From contig NC_134539.1 of NCBI RefSeq assembly GCF_050624435.1, positions 46,036,001 to 46,100,000 on the forward strand: a stretch of 64,000 nt of DNA, in the 5' to 3' direction. The stretch's first letter is position 1. Every line of letters begins with the position of its first letter. Both the position numbers and the translations under genes were made by a program. The notes under the pieces are model-generated. The model did no database searches. It saw nothing but the letters and a program-made list of their open reading frames with translations, and was not told the origin of the DNA. Shown here one piece after another: positions 12,095 to 58,735 of the stretch. The DNA is from Tenrec ecaudatus. Taxonomy: Eukaryota; Chordata; Mammalia; Afrosoricida; Tenrecidae.

Positions 12095-12660
12095 GATTTG
12101 AATCATGGTGCTGGCAAAGAATATTGAAAGTACCGTGGACTGCCAGGGGAACAAGCAGACAGATCTGTCTTAGAAGAACGACAACCAGGAAGTTCCTTAG
12201 AATCGAGGATGGCAAGACTCTGTTGCGAATACTTTGGACAGGTTATCAGGAGAGACCAGTTTCTGGAAAAAAAATCACGCTTCGTAAAGTAGCTGGGCAA
12301 TGAGAAAGAAGGGAGTCTTCAATGACACTGGTTCTCCACCTTCCTCATGCCGTGGCCCTTGAATACAGTTCCTCATGTGGTGGTGACCCTCAACCATAAC
12401 ATTATTTTCGTTGCTACTTCATCACTGTCATTTTGCTACTGTCATGAATCAGGCGACCCCTGTGAAAGGGTTGTTCGACCTCCGAGGGGGTTATGACCCA
12501 CAGGTTGAGAACCACTGTCCTATGAGCTGGATTGACGCCACAGTACAGCAATCAGCTCCAACATAACCGGTGCGAGGCTGGAGCAGGGCAGGCAGGGTTT
12601 CCTTCTGCCTTGCCCGGCACTGCTCTGAGTTAGAACCAATTCAACAGCACTTAGCAATGA
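12095..12660 (+). mobile_element. RTE-clade LINE 3' fragment, split by a SPIN element
   Basis: The left part (12095-12325) encodes the C-terminal region of the RTE ORF in the open frame that ends at 12303. It includes the 'WCWQRILKVPWTAR' motif, which resembles the conserved segment downstream of the reverse transcriptase in BovB/RTE proteins. The right part (12518-12660) resumes with 'gagctggattgacgcca' and ends near 'ttcaacagcacttagcaa', the usual 3' terminus. A 192-bp hAT element separates the halves. The frame is not a functional gene; it is 5'-truncated and decayed. Confidence 0.85.
12326..12517. mobile_element. SPIN-type hAT MITE inside an RTE fragment
   Basis: The left terminal inverted repeat reads cactggttctccacc and the right ggttgagaaccactg. 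The family form is cagtggttctcaacc, so the left end carries two substitutions. Internal motifs 'cagttcctcatgtggtggtg' and 'gctacttcatcactgtcatt' fit the SPIN non-autonomous family. Flanking 8-mers ttcaatga (12318-12325) and tcctatga (12518-12525) match at six of eight positions, consistent with an aged 8-bp hAT target duplication. It encodes no transposase. Confidence 0.9.
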
Positions 12661-13724: not shown

Positions 13725-14712
13725 ATGCCTGATCCTGTCATTCTCACAACCGTGGTTGTGTTTGAGCCCATTGTTACCGCTCCCGCGTCCAACTATCTCC
13801 TTGGGTATCTTCCTCTTTTTCATTGACCCTCCGCCTTATCAAGCATGATGGCTCCTGCTTGGTAGCAGGGACTGCTCTCTCCTGAGAACTGTAAGGGGAA
13901 GTCTCACCGTCCCCACTTCTAAGGAGCATTCGGCTATACTTCTCCCACGGCATATTTGTTTGTTCTTCTGGCAGCCCATAGTAATATCAATATTCTTCAC
14001 CAACCTCCTAATTCTAGTGCTTCAATTCTTTTTCTGTCCTTCTAATTCCTTGCTCAACTCTTACAGACTTCTGAGATGCCTGAAGACACCATGGCTTGGG
14101 TGTGGCACCTTGTAGAGCTCAAAGTAGCATCCTTGCTCTTCAACACATTAGTGGACCCTGTACAGCAGCTTTGCCCAGTGCAACACAGTCTCTGATTTCT
14201 CGACTGCTGCTTCCATCAGCATCTAGTTGATCTACGCAAATGGAAATCTCTGACAACTTCAATCTTTTCTCCATTCATCATGATATTATTTATTAATCCA
14301 ATTGTTTTCTTTCATTAAGGTGTAATTCATACTGAAGGCTGCCGTCTATGATTTTCATCAGCAAATGCTTCAAGTCCTTCTTGGTTTCAGCAAGCAAGGC
14401 TGTGTCATCTACATATCACAGTTTATTAATCAGCTTTCCTCCAATCCTCATGCTAGATCCTTCTTCCTAGAGTCTAGTTTGGGGAAGTATTTGCGAAGCA
14501 TACAGATAAAGTAAGTATGGCAAGAGGATAAAACTCAGATGTACACTTTCCTGATTTGAAACTCAGATGTACACTTTCCTGATTTGCATTCCCTCATTCT
14601 GTTCTAAGGATTTTCTCTTGGTCCATGTGCAAGTCTGGCATGAACTCAATTAAGTGTTCTGGGATTCTTATATGATGATTTCCAACTATCCAAGTTATGA
14701 ATCTAGTTACAT
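13725..14712 (-). mobile_element. RTE-clade (BovB-like) LINE, 3' kilobase, antisense
   Basis: From left to right the reverse complement of an RTE 3' region is readable: the 3' UTR and C-terminal coding end (13725-14000), the linker ('caccatggcttgggtgtggc' near 14089), and the reverse transcriptase core. The catalytic Y-x-D-D codons (Tyr-Val-Asp-Asp) lie at 14404-14415 on the minus strand and are immediately preceded by an in-frame stop (14416-14418). Frameshifts and stops make it dead. It contains an exact 28-bp tandem duplication at 14531-14586. The upstream endonuclease region is missing. Confidence 0.85.
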
Positions 14713-25700: not shown

Positions 25701-26238
25701 TGATTTGCCTTCTGAGGAGAGAATTCATTCCCAGTAAACTGTATGATGTGCATAAATGTTTCGTTATGAGCAACTTTCATGGAAATGAAGACATTTCTGC
25801 ATTTAGTTCTGCAGTAACATTTCATTCTTTTGACTTTGCTTCTGTTACATAGTAGGACAATGGAAGCTGATGCTTCTGAGATTTTCTGTATGTCAATAAA
25901 ATATAGTAAAATAATTTAATTTGGGAAACATATTACATAGTCCACTTTTCAAAAAGAATAACATTGTCCCTCTCTCCTGATTATTACTATATTTAGGAAT
26001 TATTGAAAGAATAAATAATGTTACCATTACCAATTACATCAAATATTAGCCTTGGTCTACTTTTTTTAATTCTTTGCTTTGGTATTTATGTGTCCACATT
26101 AACATTTGACCCTTTGGACTGGGAAGGTTTGGTGGTATCATTAGCATATGTTAAGCAAAGTGTGGAAATGTTTACTTTTTAACTTTACATTCTTTTGTGA
26201 GTAATGATAGATTTCTAAGGGGGAAAAAGATACTTAAT
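25701..26238. other. Unassigned AT-rich stretch
   Basis: No exon or repeat recognised; adjoins the 3' end of a long antisense L1. Confidence 0.45.
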
Positions 26239-28130
26239 TTTTTAAATCATTTTATTGTGGCGCATACAACTCTTATCACAATCCACACATACATCAATTG
26301 TGTAAAGTACACTTATGCATTCGTTGTCCTCATCATTCTTAAAACTCTCACTTTCCTCTTGGGCTCCTCATTTTTCTTTTATTTCCCACCCCCTCCCTCA
26401 CCACTCCACCCTCCCTCATGAACCCTTGATAATTTATAAATTATTATTATGTCATGTCTTACCCTGTCCGATGTCTCCCTCCCTTCACCCACTTTTCTGT
26501 TACCCATCCCCCAGGGAGAAGGTTATATGTAGATCCTTGTAATTGGTTCCCCCTTTCTACTCCTCCTTCCCTCTTTCCTCCTGGTATCGCCACTCTCACC
26601 ACTGGTCCTGAGGGGTTCATCTGTCCTGGATTCCGTGTTTCCAGTTCCCATCTGCACCGTTGTGCATCCTCTGGTCTTACCAGGTTTGCAAGGTAGAATT
26701 GGGATCATGATAGTGGGGGGAAGGAAGCATTTAAGAACTAAAGGAAGTTTGTGAGTTTCGTCAATGCTACCCTGCACCCTGAGTGACTCATCTCCTCCCC
26801 ACTACCCATCTGCAAGGGATGTCCAGGTGTCTACAGATGAGCATTGGGTTCCATCACACGCTCCCCTCATTCATGATTATATGGTTTTTCCCCCTTTGGT
26901 GCTTGATACCTGGTCCCCTCAATGCTTCATTATCATACATGCTGGTGTGCTTCTACAATGTGGGCTTTGTTGCTTCTGGCATACATGGCCGCTTGTTTAC
27001 CTTCAATTTTTTAAGACCCCAGACGCTATATCTCTCGATAGCTGGGCACCATCAGCCTTCTTCACCACACTTACTTATGCACACATTCATCTTCAGCGTT
27101 TATATGGGCAAGGTGAGCACACAATGATGGTTTTTGTTCTTTGTTGTCTGCTACCTGATCCCTTCAACACCTTGTGATCACACAGGCTTGTGTGCTTCTT
27201 CCCTGTGCACTTTGTTGCTTCCGATCTAGATGGCCTCTTGTTTACCTTCAAGAGTTTAAGACCCCAGATGCTATATCTTTTGATAGCTGGGCACCATCAG
27301 CTTTCTTCACCATGTTTGCTTATGCACACGTTTGTCCTCAGTGATCGTGTCAGGAAGCTGGGTATCATGGAATGACATTTAGCTGAGCAAAAGTGCTCTT
27401 GTATTAAGGGAATGCATGTGAGGAGGCCCAATGTCCACCTGCTACTCTACTATTAAACCTATAAATATATGCACATAGGTCTATTTCCCCCATAATCATA
27501 AATATATTTACATATGTACATGTCTGTATTTGGGCCTGTATGTATGCCCTTTGCCTCCTACTCCTTTCCTCTATTTCCTTATGCTTTCCTCCTGTCTCAC
27601 TACCATGTTCAGCCTTCATTCTGGTTTCAGTAATTCCTCTCTGTTACCTTGCCTTTGGTCACTCCCTACCAGTCCTCCCATCCCCTCCCTCCACTGGCTT
27701 TGAACCACTCCTTGTTCCCTTGTCCCTGGGTTGACCAACACCTCCCTTCCCCCACCTTCCACTCTCCCATGTCCCCCAGGGCCGTTGGTCCCATTGTTTT
27801 CTTCTCCACATTGTTTATCCAGCCTATCTTATCTGCAGAGATAAGATAGACCTGCAGAGATACTAATATGTACATAAAATTGTGGATGACCTCAATAGCA
27901 CCAAACAAAGTTGCACACAGGAACATGGCCATGACGGCTGCAACACCGACAAACCAACAAAAAGCCACTGACATACAAAATCTAAAAGAAGAGAGAAAAA
28001 AATTTTTTAAGAAAAGCCTGTTAATAGTTCAAGGTCTGTTTGTTGACCTTTAGGAGTGTTTGCCGGTCGAGTCTGATGGGGTGCCATGCCCTGACCCCAA
28101 AGTCCTTAATGTTAATATAAAGTTATTATT
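26239..28130 (-). mobile_element. Long L1 3' UTR, antisense, about 1.9 kb
   Basis: The left end is the reverse-complement 3' terminus ('aaatcattttattgtggcgc', 'tcaattgtgtaaagtacac'). The body then runs about 1.9 kb through landmarks found in the sense copies at 51365-52532 and 53719-54542: 'gatgctatatcttttgatag' and 'catgtgggctttgttgcttc'-type motifs. The block beginning near 27120 ('tgtctgctacctgatccctt' through 'gatagctgggcaccatcagc') repeats one at 26870-27060. No ORF2 is visible at the right end, so this copy is truncated within a very long non-coding 3' region. Open frames inside are incidental. Confidence 0.8.
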
Positions 28131-48962: not shown

Positions 48963-49039
48963 TCAAGGGGAAGTCAGATATCATGTAAGAACTTCGCAGT
49001 ATGTTCATAGAAGCAACCAGAAGGAAGTCCAAGCTTGTT

Positions 49040-51241
49040 GCTGTTAAATGCCATCGAGTTTGGCGAGACTCATAGCAATAAATGGACAACAGAGGACAAC
49101 ACTCGATGCTTGAGCCCAACGTAGCTGCCCCGGGGTCTTCCTCTCTTCTGTTAACTCTTCACTTATCCAGCATGCTGTCTGTCTCCTGGGATTGGCCCAT
49201 CCTTCTAGCACATCCTTCTAGTAGGAGAGACAGAGTGTTACCACCTCCCTGGCTTCCTAGGAGCAATTTGGCTGTCTTCTTCCAAAACAAATGAGTTTCA
49301 TTTTCTTGTAACTCATGATTTATTCAATCTTCTTCTCCAACACCATTTTCAGAAATATCATTTCTTCTCCGGTCTTCCTCATTTATTTTCCATCGTTGGC
49401 ATGCATATGAAATGGCATGGTGCTTGAGAATACCATGGTTTGAGTCAGGCCCACCTTAGTCCTCCAGGTGACATCATTGCCCTTTCACACTATTTAAAGA
49501 GCTCTTTAGCAGCAGATTGGCCCAGTGCAACACATCATTTGACTTCTTGCTACATTGCTGCCCTGCCACTTTATTTTCTTTTTAAAACAAGTTAGCTAGC
49601 ATATAATTCATGCACCTTGCAGTTCAATTGCTTGAGTATATTAGAAAGCATCATGCCCCCACAGGCACAATTGTCAAAGTATTTTCTTCGTTCCTGTATC
49701 CATTATGATTGACTCCCTATGACCTCCCAACCTTCTGTGCCATAACCCTAAGGAATAATTAATCTAGCTGCTGTCTCTATGGGTTACTGATCCTAGATTT
49801 CACATCAAGAAAATCATGCCCAAAACACCAGCGATGACAACAAAATTAAACACAAGAACTTCAATCCAAGAGAAAACAGAAGATAATAGAAATTAGAACA
49901 AATTAAAAACGGGTGACCGCTGCTTTCTTGAGCATTTATTGTGGATCCAAATAAAATGACATCTTTGAAAACTTCAATCTTTTCTCTATCGTGATGTTAT
50001 TTATTGGTCTAGCTGAGGGAACTTTTGTTTTCTTTACACTGAGTTGTAATCCACAGTAAAGGTTGTCATTTTCACCTTCATCCATAAGAGCTTCATGTCT
50101 GTGTCACTTTCAGCAATAAAAGTTGTGTCATCAGCATATCACAGGTTGCTAATGAGTCTCCCTCCAATCCCGTGGGACAGTTTTCTTCATATCATCCAGC
50201 TTCTCGGATTATTTGCTCAGCATGCAATTTAAATAATAATGTGGAAAGGATACAATTCTTGTGCACCTCTTTCCTGATTTCAAACAACTCAGCATCCCCT
50301 TGTTCTACTTAAATGACTCCCTGTTGGTGTATATACAATTACCCTGTGAGCATAATGAAGTATTCTAGAATTACCATTTGGAACAATGTTATTCATAGGT
50401 TGCTAGGATCGAAACAATCAAGAATATTTTTATAGACAATAAAGCACAAGTAAAAGTACACATCTTTCTGGTATTCTCTGTTTTCAGCCAAGATTCATCT
50501 CACATATTCTTCTGAATCCAGATCCCTGTCAATGAACTACTTCAACCTTTGTTGAATTGTCTTCAGGAAAATTGCATATGATATTAATGGAATTTGAAAT
50601 TTCGCATATTTGTTAGATCACATTTATTGGGGATGAATATAAATTTGAATCTCTTCCAGTCAGTTGTCTAGATAGTTGTCTGCCAAATCTTAAATAGATG
50701 AGTGAGTGCTTCCAGGGGGTATGCTAGTTTGCTGAAATAGCTACAAATTGGTATTACATCAATTCCTGAAGCCCTGTTCTTTGCTAATGACCCCAGTGGA
50801 GTTTGGATTTCTTCCTGAAGTACCGTCAGTTCTTGATCAAGTGCTACTTCTTTAAATGCTTTCATGATAAGCAATTATTTGGGGGTACATTGGCTTTGTG
50901 TATTCCTCCCATTTTCTTTTGGTGCTTCCTGAATCATTCCATATTTTACCCATGGAATCCTTCAGTGCTTCAGCTCAAAGCTTTAATGTTTCTTCAGTTT
51001 TTCAGCTTGAGAAATTCTGAGCATGTTTCCTTTTATTTTCTCAAGCTGAATTTTCTCTTTTTGAATTTTTGCATTTTCTATTCAGTTCTTTTATTTCATA
51101 TTTCCTTCCTGTCAATTTAATTTCTCTACATTCAAGAGCAAGTTTCAGAATCTCTTTTGACTACTATTTTGATCTTTTCTTTCCTGTCTTTTTCTTAATG
51201 TCATCCCAAAACTCCTCTCTTCTTCAGTCATTAATGTCCAA
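49040..51241 (-). mobile_element. Long RTE-clade (BovB-like) LINE, antisense, host of nested insertions
   Basis: The most complete RTE in the window, readable on the minus strand from about 52700 down to 49040. The 3' end lies at 49040-49400. The reverse transcriptase YADD codons are at 50127-50138, preceded by an in-frame stop (50139-50141). An upstream RT block around 50668-50874 encodes the 'ASGIDVIP' motif, resembling the conserved 'KASGIDGIP' of RTE reverse transcriptases. The linker between endonuclease and RT lies at 50880-51241. An old L1M fragment interrupts it at 49568-49917, and an AfroSINE interrupts it at 51242. The remaining 5' part resumes at 52627. Multiple stops and frameshifts make it inactive. 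Confidence 0.87.
49568..49917 (-). mobile_element. L1M-type 3' UTR fragment inserted in the RTE
   Basis: 'acaagttagctagcatataa', 'ttcatgcaccttgcagttca', 'ctgctgtctctatgggttac' and 'tgatcctagatttcacatca' are antisense L1 3' UTR landmarks. The RTE target around 'actgctgcttcc' appears on both sides (attgctgccctgcc left, accgctgctttctt right), consistent with a decayed target duplication. Confidence 0.72.
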
Positions 51242-51810
51242 GGCACACTGGTGATGCCATGGGTTATGTTTGGGGCTGGTAGCTGCAAGGTCAGCAGCTC
51301 AAAAGCACCAGCTGCTCTATGGGAGACGCAGGAGGCTTTCCTCTCCCATCAAGAGTTACCACATGAACATCGCGTTTCCACTCAAGTACTCTCTCAACGT
51401 TTGTTCTACTAACACGGCATTCTGTGATGCTCACCTTCCCTGACAGGATCACTGAAGACAAAATGGGTACATAGGCAAATGTGGTGAAGAAAGCTGATGG
51501 TGCCCGGCTATCAAAAGTTATAGCCTCTAGGGTCTTCAAGGCTTGAAGATTAACAAGCGTCCATCTAGCTGAGAAGCACCAAAGCCCACATGGAAGAAAC
51601 ACACCAGCCTGTGTGATCATGGGTGTCAATGGAATCAGGTATCAGGCATCAAAGACACAAAACAAAAACACGAACAAAGGGGAGGGCAGAGTGGAGATCC
51701 AAAGCCCATCAGTGGTCAATTGGACACCCCCTGTCAGAAGAGATACAAGGAGGAGACGAGCTAGTCAGAGTGCATATAGCACTGATGAAACACACAACCT
51801 TCCTCTAGTT

Positions 51811-52005
51811 CAGTGGTTCTCAACCTCCCTAATGCCACGACCCTTTAATACAGTTCCTCAAGTTGTGGTGACCCCCAAAAACCATAAAATTATTTTAATT
51901 GCTACTTCATAACTGTAAGTTTGCTACTGTTATGAATCAGGTGATCCCTGTGAAAAGGTCGTTCAACCCCCAACGGGATCGTGACTCACAGGTTGGGAAC
52001 TGCTG
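51811..52005. mobile_element. SPIN-type hAT MITE with perfect 8-bp target duplication
   Basis: Terminal inverted repeats cagtggttctcaacc and ggttgggaactgctg frame 195 bp. Internal landmarks are 'cagttcctcaagttgtggtg' and 'gctacttcataactgtaagt', with 'gtgaaaaggtcgttcaaccc' to the right. The target duplication ctctagtt is perfect at 51803-51810 and 52006-52013. Removing the element restores continuous L1 sequence ('cttcctctagttc'), as in the uninterrupted L1 at 54023-54033. Non-autonomous; it must have been mobilised by a transposase encoded elsewhere. Confidence 0.95.
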
Positions 52006-52289
52006 CTCTAGTTCTTTAATGCTTCTTCCCTACCCCCTCCCAATATCATGACCCCCAATTCTAACTGGCTAGACCAGAACATGTATACTGGTACAGATAA
52101 GAGCTCGCGACACAAGGAATCCAGGACAGACGGACCCCTCAGGACCAATAAGGGGAGTAGTGATACTAGGAGGGTAAAAGGTGGGGGGTGGAACAAAGGG
52201 GAACTGATCACAATAATTAATGTATGGCCCCCCATCCAGTGGGATGGACAAAAGAAATATGGGTGAAGGGAGACAGCAGTCAGTGTAAG

Positions 52290-52312
52290 ACACACACACA
52301 CACACACACACA
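52290..52312. repeat. (CA)n microsatellite within the L1
   Basis: About 23 bp of CA dinucleotides, absent from the equivalent position of the L1 at 53719-54542. Confidence 0.9.
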
Positions 52313-52626
52313 AATGAATAATTTCTAAATTATCAAGGGTTCATGGGAGAGGGAGGGTGGGAAGGGAAGGGGTAAAAGAGAAGCTGATACCAAGGGCTCA
52401 AGTAGAAAGAAAATGTCTTGAAAAAGGTGATGGCAACATATGTACAGATGTGTTTGACATACCAGATATATGTATGGATTGTGATAAGAGCTTGTAAGAG
52501 ACCCCAAAATGATAAAAATTTAAAATAAACAAAAGAGTTACCACATAGAAACCCACAGAGCAGTTCTACTCTGTCTTGTAGGGTTTCTTTGGGGCATCAT
52601 CAACTTGATGGCAATGGTGGAAATCA

Positions 52627-52740
52627 AAGCTATGCTTGAGATGTCTCTCAATTGAGGTGGGATATGCTGAAGGCCATATTTGGGCACTTTGGTAATTTGC
52701 CTCTTGCTATAATGCTAGAAGCTAAGCCAACAATATTTCT
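52627..52740 (-). mobile_element. RTE continuation beyond the AfroSINE
   Basis: 'gagatgtctctcaattgagg' and 'tgggatatgctgaaggccat' continue the antisense RTE (the segment upstream of the RT linker) from 51241. The clear match fades near 52700. Confidence 0.7.
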
Positions 52741-52780
52741 CAAATCATCATGGTCAGCCATGGTGACCAGGTTTCCACAG

Positions 52781-52824
52781 AGCGACCCCCAAGGGGGCCA
52801 CGACCCACAGGTTGAGAACCTCTG
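52781..52824. mobile_element. SPIN remnant, one end only
   Basis: The last 44 bp of a SPIN element are recognisable: 'agcgacccccaagggggcca', 'cgacccacaggttgagaacc', tctg. The other terminal repeat is missing. It is attached to an antisense AfroSINE, at the position equivalent to 'gaccctatagggtttc'. Confidence 0.8.
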
Positions 52825-57888: not shown

Positions 57889-58337
57889 ATTTTCCAACAT
57901 CTTGCCTACAAATTGCATCCTAGAGCACTTCAGAGAGTTAAATGGCCCCAAATGTCTATAGCTTATTTCATTATGCTTTACTTGGGGCTTTAAAGGAGAG
58001 GGTACCAGCAATGTCAGGAACAGTTTAGCAGCATCGGGGTCTAGTAGGTTGAAGAGCATTCAAAGAAATTCATTTCGGTAATCCTTTTGTTACGAGCATC
58101 ATATGGTCCTCTGAAAGCAATCTCATGATTGCCGCACAAGTGTGCTTCCTCAACTCTTGTGAGCCCGTCAGCCATGGCTTGACTTTTATTTTAATATTTT
58201 TCTTTCCTAAAGAAAGAAGGGAGGAGACAGAGCTAGAGATCTGTCCTGCGGCAGCTGAGGGTGGACCAGGCCCTGCTCTGGAAAGGGGGGTGGGGCTGAG
58301 GGGGAGATCTCAATTCCAGGCCCTCCGATTGTTTCTA
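57887..58337. other. Unassigned stretch
   Basis: No exon or repeat recognised. Confidence 0.4.
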
Positions 58338-58735
58338 AGGAGCCTGGGTTGTGTAGTGGTTGAGTGGACTTCTTGCTGAAAAGTCAGAAGTTCAAAAGCA
58401 GCAGGCACTCTACAGGAGAAAGACAAGGCTTTCTACCCCATAAAGAATTACAGACTCAGAAATTCACAGGCCAGTTCTCCCATCTTCTAGAGCAGTGGTT
58501 CTAAACCTTCCTGGTGCCGTGACCCTTTCATACCGTTCCTCATGTTGTGGTGACTCCAACCACAATTGCTACTTCATCACTGTCATTTTGCTACTGTTAT
58601 GAATCGGGTGACCCCTGTGAAAGGGTCCTTCGACTCCCAAAGGGGTCACGACCCGCAGGTTGAGAACCACTGTTCTATAGGGCCGCTATGAGTCGGCATC
58701 AAGTCAATGACAATGAGTTTGGTTTTAGAGCTTAT
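58338..58735 (+). mobile_element. AfroSINE split by a SPIN element
   Basis: The head 'aggagcctgggttgtgtagt', B-box area 'aagtcagaagttcaaaagca' and body 'cagaaattcacaggccagtt' lie left of the SPIN. 'gggccgctatgagtcggcat', 'caagtcaatgacaatgagtt' lie right of it. Together they form a nearly complete AfroSINE of about 215 bp. Confidence 0.93.
58493..58672. mobile_element. SPIN-type hAT MITE inside an AfroSINE
   Basis: Ends cagtggttctaaacc and ggttgagaaccactg; 180 bp. Flanking 8-mers ttctagag (58485-58492) and ttctatag (58673-58680) match at seven of eight positions. Interior 'gctacttcatcactgtcatt' and 'gtgaaagggtccttcgactc'. Shorter than the other two copies because part of the left-centre is deleted. 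Confidence 0.95.

What the first reader, a model, noticed from the sequence alone, without database searches (positions are those of the whole stretch)
49040..52740. Four-level nest of transposons giving a local chronology
An antisense RTE LINE (49040-51241, resuming at 52627) is interrupted by an AfroSINE (51242-52620). That SINE is interrupted by an L1 (51365-52532) with an exact 14-bp duplication, and the L1 is interrupted by a SPIN (51811-52005) with a perfect 8-bp duplication. The RTE also holds a separate L1M fragment. Order of events: RTE, AfroSINE, L1, SPIN. It dates the SPIN invasion after activity of this L1 lineage without any substitution-rate model.
Basis: partly seen in the sequence, partly recalled or inferred. 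Interest (0 to 1): 0.75.

Follow-up and report, generated by a model that had tools for sequence, protein, structure and literature searches.

The report
Transposon nest with SPIN insertion hotspot
Four mobile elements really do sit inside one another here in the order described, but other nests in the same genome show that this L1 family went on jumping after the SPIN invasion, so this nest does not mark the end of L1 activity.

Summary
The nest is real. The L1 (51365-52532) has a perfect 14-bp target duplication, the SPIN (51811-52005) a perfect 8-bp one, and removing each guest restores its host. The copies' own divergences (leave-one-out, CpG skipped) rise outward in the same order: SPIN 5.7%, L1 11-13%, AfroSINE 17.5%, RTE about 21.5%. 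The AfroSINE level has no recognisable duplication; it rests on RTE continuity, with one uninterrupted relative.

The wider inference fails as worded. The L1 site CTCTAGTT is a SPIN hotspot: 40 of 40 scored junction hits carry SPIN there in the window's orientation and 40 of 40 in the opposite one, so insertions are largely independent. All 17 SPIN-bearing L1s read on both flanks lie in the old part of the L1 tree. Of 164 exact SPIN/L1 right junctions genome-wide, one has the younger subfamily's flank. Conversely, two SPIN copies (L099, L100) contain later L1s of this lineage, one with a perfect 15-bp duplication.

SPIN thus falls inside the L1 succession, not after it. Nest-based dating is established (PMC3014933). 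The elements are of known kinds; the hotspot and two-sided bracket are the useful result.

The parts
49038..52760 (-). RTE LINE copy, interrupted (pieces about 49038-49559, 49917-51241, 52621-52760)
   Evidence: 21.4-21.6% from its family outside CpG; strand from a YADD-like stretch seen by eye, not confirmed by Pfam or PDB
49560..49916 (-). old fragment inside the RTE, related to an L1 3' end (strand inferred); degraded duplication of about 10 bp; boundaries approximate
   Evidence: RTE copy at 13787-14667 is continuous at this point
51242..52620 (+). AfroSINE, interrupted (51242-51364 and 52547-52620), tRNA-like head with A and B box matches
   Evidence: 17.5% from its family outside CpG; no recognisable duplication
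51351..51364 (+). left copy of the 14-bp L1 target duplication
51365..52532 (+). 5'-truncated L1 3' region of the old subfamily, with short A-rich end, interrupted by SPIN
   Evidence: 11-13% from its family outside CpG
51803..51810 (+). left copy of the 8-bp SPIN target duplication CTCTAGTT
51811..52005 (+). SPIN, full-length non-autonomous hAT element
   Evidence: 5.7% from its family outside CpG
52006..52013 (+). right copy of the 8-bp SPIN target duplication
52533..52546 (+). right copy of the 14-bp L1 target duplication

Best explanation
An RTE copy received an AfroSINE. A 5'-truncated L1 of an old subfamily then inserted into the AfroSINE's TAAAGAGTTAC stretch, leaving a 14-bp duplication. 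Later a SPIN DNA transposon inserted into the L1's CTCTAGTT, which fits SPIN's target preference, leaving an 8-bp duplication. Shown: the order, the duplications, the hotspot and its use in both orientations. Inferred from the known behaviour of these element types: target-primed reverse transcription for L1, cut-and-paste for SPIN. Also inferred: the SPIN wave fell after this L1 subfamily had spread and before younger members of the same L1 lineage, which in turn inserted into SPIN copies.
For: Exact duplications; continuity after excision; monotonic divergence; SPIN target preference CTCTAGAN in 22 of 26 full-length copies with at least 6 of 8 duplication bases alike; 40 of 40 scored junction hits in each orientation; SPIN less diverged than its host L1 in 15 of 16 copies; 17 of 17 SPIN-bearing L1s with both flanks in the old grade against 2 old and 6 young among SPIN-free intact sites; 164 exact right junctions of which 1 has the younger flank; two L1-in-SPIN nests.
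Against: The AfroSINE step lacks a duplication and RTE continuity there rests on one diverged relative. By plain divergence the young L1 groups and SPIN overlap, and some young L1 copies with intact sites look at least as old as SPIN, so the bracket rests on nests, not on a clock. SPIN-free sites were counted in a small sample (20 pieces of 10 kb from three contigs, plus the window). Only two reverse nests were read, and the subfamily of one L1 in L099 rests on few sites. Some SPIN-bearing junctions have intermediate flanks (18 CCTGAATG, 6 CCTTAATG), and C_L050 is transitional, so the boundary is not sharp. A 14-bp duplication that stays perfect beside an L1 diverged by 11-13% is somewhat lucky.
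Confidence: 0.8

Rival explanations
1. Co-mobilisation: SPIN landed once in an active L1 source and L1 copies then carried it along, so in this nest SPIN would be older than the L1 insertion.
For: 40 of 40 scored hits have SPIN at the same L1 base in the same orientation, and the hosts belong to one L1 subfamily.
Against: The opposite orientation is as common in the capped list: 40 of 40 hits, 726 against 864 first-look candidates. SPIN is less diverged than its L1 in 15 of 16 copies (Wilcoxon p=1.5e-4), and in the left L1 part alone p=7e-4. L1 and SPIN distances do not rise together (Mantel r -0.42). SPIN-bearing copies are scattered in the SPIN tree.
Confidence: 0.05
2. Target bias instead of timing: SPIN hit old-subfamily L1s because their flank CTTTAATG suits it better than the younger CCTAAATG, so the subfamily bias says nothing about dates.
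For: Both subfamilies keep CTCTAGTT but differ just after it.
Against: The visible preference lies in the 8-bp target (flanks beyond it were not tested), and both orientations show the same bias. The L1-in-SPIN nests place young L1s after SPIN independently of this.
Confidence: 0.15
3. Misjoined or chance repeats: the nest is a reading of unrelated repeat pieces or an assembly error.
For: The region is repeat-rich, and short two-copy repeats are often chance.
Against: The duplications sit exactly at element ends known from other copies, hosts are continuous after excision, and the same L1/SPIN junction recurs elsewhere.
Confidence: 0.02

Closest known systems
Transposition-in-transposition (TinT) chronology (PMC3014933, passages read)
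   Same: Uses nested insertions as a relative, rate-independent order of element activity.
   Different: It uses a genome-wide matrix of retroposons (Alu example); here the guest is a DNA transposon hitting one L1 base repeatedly, and reverse nests close the bracket.
SPIN and OC1 horizontally transferred hAT transposons (PMC3621081 and PMC11614815, passages read; the primary SPIN papers are recalled, one, PMC3350315, is not held)
   Same: Short non-autonomous element with 8-bp duplications and near-identical ends; several per cent divergence, near the 8.1% average given for the related OC1 in tenrec.
   Different: The passages read give average divergence, not nests; I saw no L1 hotspot mentioned in them.
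Afrotherian L1 (AfroLINE) succession (PMC1764860, passages and one section) and RTE-driven AfroSINEs (PMC5322556, passages)
   Same: Lineage-specific L1 groups with continued activity; AfroSINEs linked to RTE activity.
   Different: In the parts read, neither orders these elements against SPIN.

Membership tests
SPIN (hAT DNA transposon) | 8-bp target duplication | tested here: met
   8 of 8 here; 22 of 26 full-length copies have at least 6 of 8 alike, 4 do not
SPIN (hAT DNA transposon) | short terminal inverted repeats | tested here: met
   CAGTGGTTCTCAACC and CAGCAGTTCCCAACC
SPIN (hAT DNA transposon) | sequence identity to published SPIN consensus | not testable with these tools
L1 LINE | A-rich 3' end, 5' truncation, target duplication | tested here: met
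   14-bp duplication and A-rich end; truncation points vary among copies
L1 LINE | joined to an L1 ORF2 | tested here: inconclusive
   upstream flanks of six copies, up to 3 kb, showed no recognisable coding frame by eye; no profile search was run on them
AfroSINE | tRNA-like head with pol III A and B boxes | tested here: met
   A box at 15 and B box at 60 of the family consensus
AfroSINE | match to the published AfroSINE consensus | not testable with these tools
RTE LINE | RTE-type reverse transcriptase | tested here: inconclusive
   YADD-like motif on the minus strand by eye; Pfam 0 families for 2 frames, PDB 0 matches for 1 frame

The most novel reading that the evidence does not exclude
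One base position of an L1 3' region was struck by SPIN at least 80 times (40 hits in each orientation, both lists capped) and probably hundreds of times, largely independently. The subfamily of each struck L1, together with younger L1s inserted inside SPIN, makes the SPIN invasion a rate-free time horizon within the L1 succession: a bracketed relative date for a horizontal transfer read from a single genome. A minority of struck L1s may also have carried SPIN along when they jumped; this was not excluded.
Probability: 0.7. Interest if true: 0.5.

Novelty: new member of a known kind. Interest (0 to 1): 0.4.

Why it matters
SPIN is known for spreading between species, and its arrival is usually dated from divergence. 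A target hotspot inside an abundant L1 family, plus reverse nests, gives an independent two-sided relative date within one genome and a simple test for related species. It also shows why a single nest must not be read as the end of a lineage.

Tried and rejected
Co-mobilisation of a SPIN-bearing L1 was the main threat to the order; one search raised it and argue against it as the general case. L040 (SPIN 33 bp from a young L1) is adjacency, not a nest. L050 resembles the window nest (L1+SPIN in the same AfroSINE site, similar 5' truncation) but has its own imperfect duplication and 3' end and is not the window copy's sister in the L1 tree, so I treat it as independent. Looking for L1 coding sequence upstream failed. 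Pfam and PDB searches of decayed RTE frames failed. A nest matrix from the sample was too small to use, and its rows with SPIN as host between 52005 and 52783 are a false chain. I first thought the 18 CCTGAATG junctions shared one SPIN-end variant; on recount 17 of 18 do, against 8 of the 10 matches printed, so this is not evidence of a clonal group. Paper searches listed 0, 6, 5 and 15 (of 112) papers; no listed title concerned SPIN nests in tenrec.

Full report
CHECKING THE NEST. The window lies in an unnamed 3.92-Gb genome. The two inner duplications are exact: 14 bp around the L1 and 8 bp around SPIN. Consensuses built from copies in the window and fetched loci (L1 from 58 hits, AfroSINE from 74, SPIN from 10 and later 30) align through each site once the guest and one duplication copy are removed in the script. 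The RTE pieces on either side of the AfroSINE are consecutive, but past the junction that consensus rests on the window copy, so the independent evidence is one diverged RTE relative, L013, that runs through the point. No duplication is recognisable at the AfroSINE ends. The extra old fragment in the RTE is also an insertion, since the RTE copy at 13787-14667 is continuous there.

DIVERGENCE AS A SECOND WITNESS. With this nest masked from the reference set and CpG sites skipped, the copy's divergence is SPIN 5.7 +-1.7% (176 sites, 49 hits), L1 12.9 +-1.1% against all 71 hits or 11.0 +-1.0% against SPIN-bearing copies, AfroSINE 17.5 +-2.8%, RTE 21.4-21.6%. This is the order of the nest. Most SPIN reference copies were picked for likeness to this SPIN, which may lower its figure.

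THE SITE IS A HOTSPOT. SPIN duplications follow CTCTAGAN, and the L1 3' region contains CTCTAGTT. Of 385 TCTAG/CTAGA sites in the 264 kb of sample plus window, about 10 are this L1 position (the window's own L1 is counted on both sides of SPIN). Of 39 other SPIN copies fetched for likeness alone (L002-L008, L029-L048, L057-L068), one (L044) sits at the same L1 base in the opposite orientation and one (L058) elsewhere in an L1. A junction query returned 40 of 40 scored hits across the junction in the window's orientation, the window included (864 candidates), and 40 of 40 in the other (726 candidates). I fetched 18 of the 39 others of the first list. All 18 have SPIN at that base; 15 have L1 recovered on both sides, and 3 (L070, L076, L078) do not and were left out of the paired counts. 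I fetched 20 of the opposite-orientation list. A lenient script rule called 13 old type, 1 young type and 6 unresolved; the 'young' one (L085) has an ambiguous flank.

INDEPENDENT INSERTIONS OR A SPIN-CARRYING L1? A SPIN carried inside an active L1 would reverse the order in this nest. Against it: both orientations are common; SPIN is less diverged than its L1 in 15 of 16 copies (p=1.5e-4; pooled slow sites 5.0% for SPIN, 7.7% left and 11.6% right for L1); L1 and SPIN distances do not rise together (Mantel r -0.42); SPIN-bearing copies are scattered in the SPIN tree. G-rich L1 stretches could inflate the L1 figure, but the cleaner left part alone still differs (p=7e-4). A SPIN that was young when captured would also give a scattered SPIN tree, so that point is weak alone. 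A small co-mobilised share is not excluded.

WHERE SPIN FALLS IN THE L1 SUCCESSION. The L1 tree is a ladder, drawn without support values. All 17 SPIN-bearing copies with both flanks (window, L044 and 15 others) fall in its old part, C_L050 nearest the transition. By flank, the script called 16 of the 17 old and left one (a one-base gap) undecided, which I counted as old. Among SPIN-free copies with an intact site, 2 are old and 6 young (Fisher p=1.6e-4). Genome-wide, 164 exact right junctions match flanks C[CT]T[AGT]AATG, with none for the reversed control. In the complete list (27 matches), CCTAAATG accounts for 1, CCTTAATG 6, CCTGAATG 18, CTTAAATG 1 and one other variant for 1; that leaves 138 of the 164, by subtraction, for CTTTAATG or CTTGAATG. 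Free sites in the sample were 4 CCTAAATG, 1 CTTTAATG and 1 CCTCAATG. A Fisher test of 138:1 against 1:4 gives p=1.4e-6, though the two counts differ in scope. The 24 intermediate flanks show the boundary is not sharp.

THE REVERSE NEST. A query joining the L1 3' end to the A-rich middle of SPIN gave two clearly spanning hits among 41 listed; a third, weaker hit (C22:91069651) was not read. Both clear hits were fetched. L100 is SPIN 1-88, L1 719-938, SPIN 71-193, with AAAATTATTTTTGTT on both sides; its L1 is of the youngest type (24 of 27 diagnostic sites against the old type; 5.4% from the young consensus). L099 has two L1 pieces in one SPIN: one leans young against old (16 to 6), the other is intermediate, closer to the middle type than the old by only 3 sites. 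So this L1 lineage kept inserting after SPIN. Only one orientation of this query was answered.

CONCLUSION. The inference must be changed: SPIN came after this L1 subfamily but within, not after, the activity of the lineage. By plain divergence the young L1 groups and SPIN overlap, so the bracket rests on nests, not on a clock. Nested-insertion dating is an established method (PMC3014933, passages). Of PMC3621081, PMC11614815, PMC5322556 and PMC1764860 I read passages, and of the last one section.

Noticed in passing
window 58337-58715: A second SPIN (58493-58672) sits inside another AfroSINE with a 7 of 8 duplication: a further nest in the same order.
   Followed up: partly
window 51351-51364; L050; L023:8387-9169: All 3 L1-in-AfroSINE nests seen use the same AfroSINE position (TAAAGAGTTAC), suggesting an L1 insertion hotspot in AfroSINE.
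   Followed up: partly
L058:173-512: SPIN in the same L1 family at a different position (consensus about 880) with a perfect ATCCATTG duplication; its L1 subfamily was not typed.
   Followed up: no
window 52783-52824: A SPIN end fragment (consensus 152-193) just outside the nest, next to an antisense AfroSINE; no full element or duplication was established.
   Followed up: no
window 12096-12517: A SPIN (12326-12517) directly abuts an RTE piece ending at 12325; the other RTE half was not found.
   Followed up: no
genome-wide, one search list: 18 SPIN/L1 right junctions have the flank CCTGAATG, an L1 type not seen among the sampled SPIN-free intact sites; their place in the L1 succession is unknown.
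   Followed up: no
L013:5681-6399, L020:2836-4026, L027:3828-5062, window 26234-27434: Some L1 copies repeat about 250-300 bp of the 3' region, in direct or inverted arrangement.
   Followed up: no
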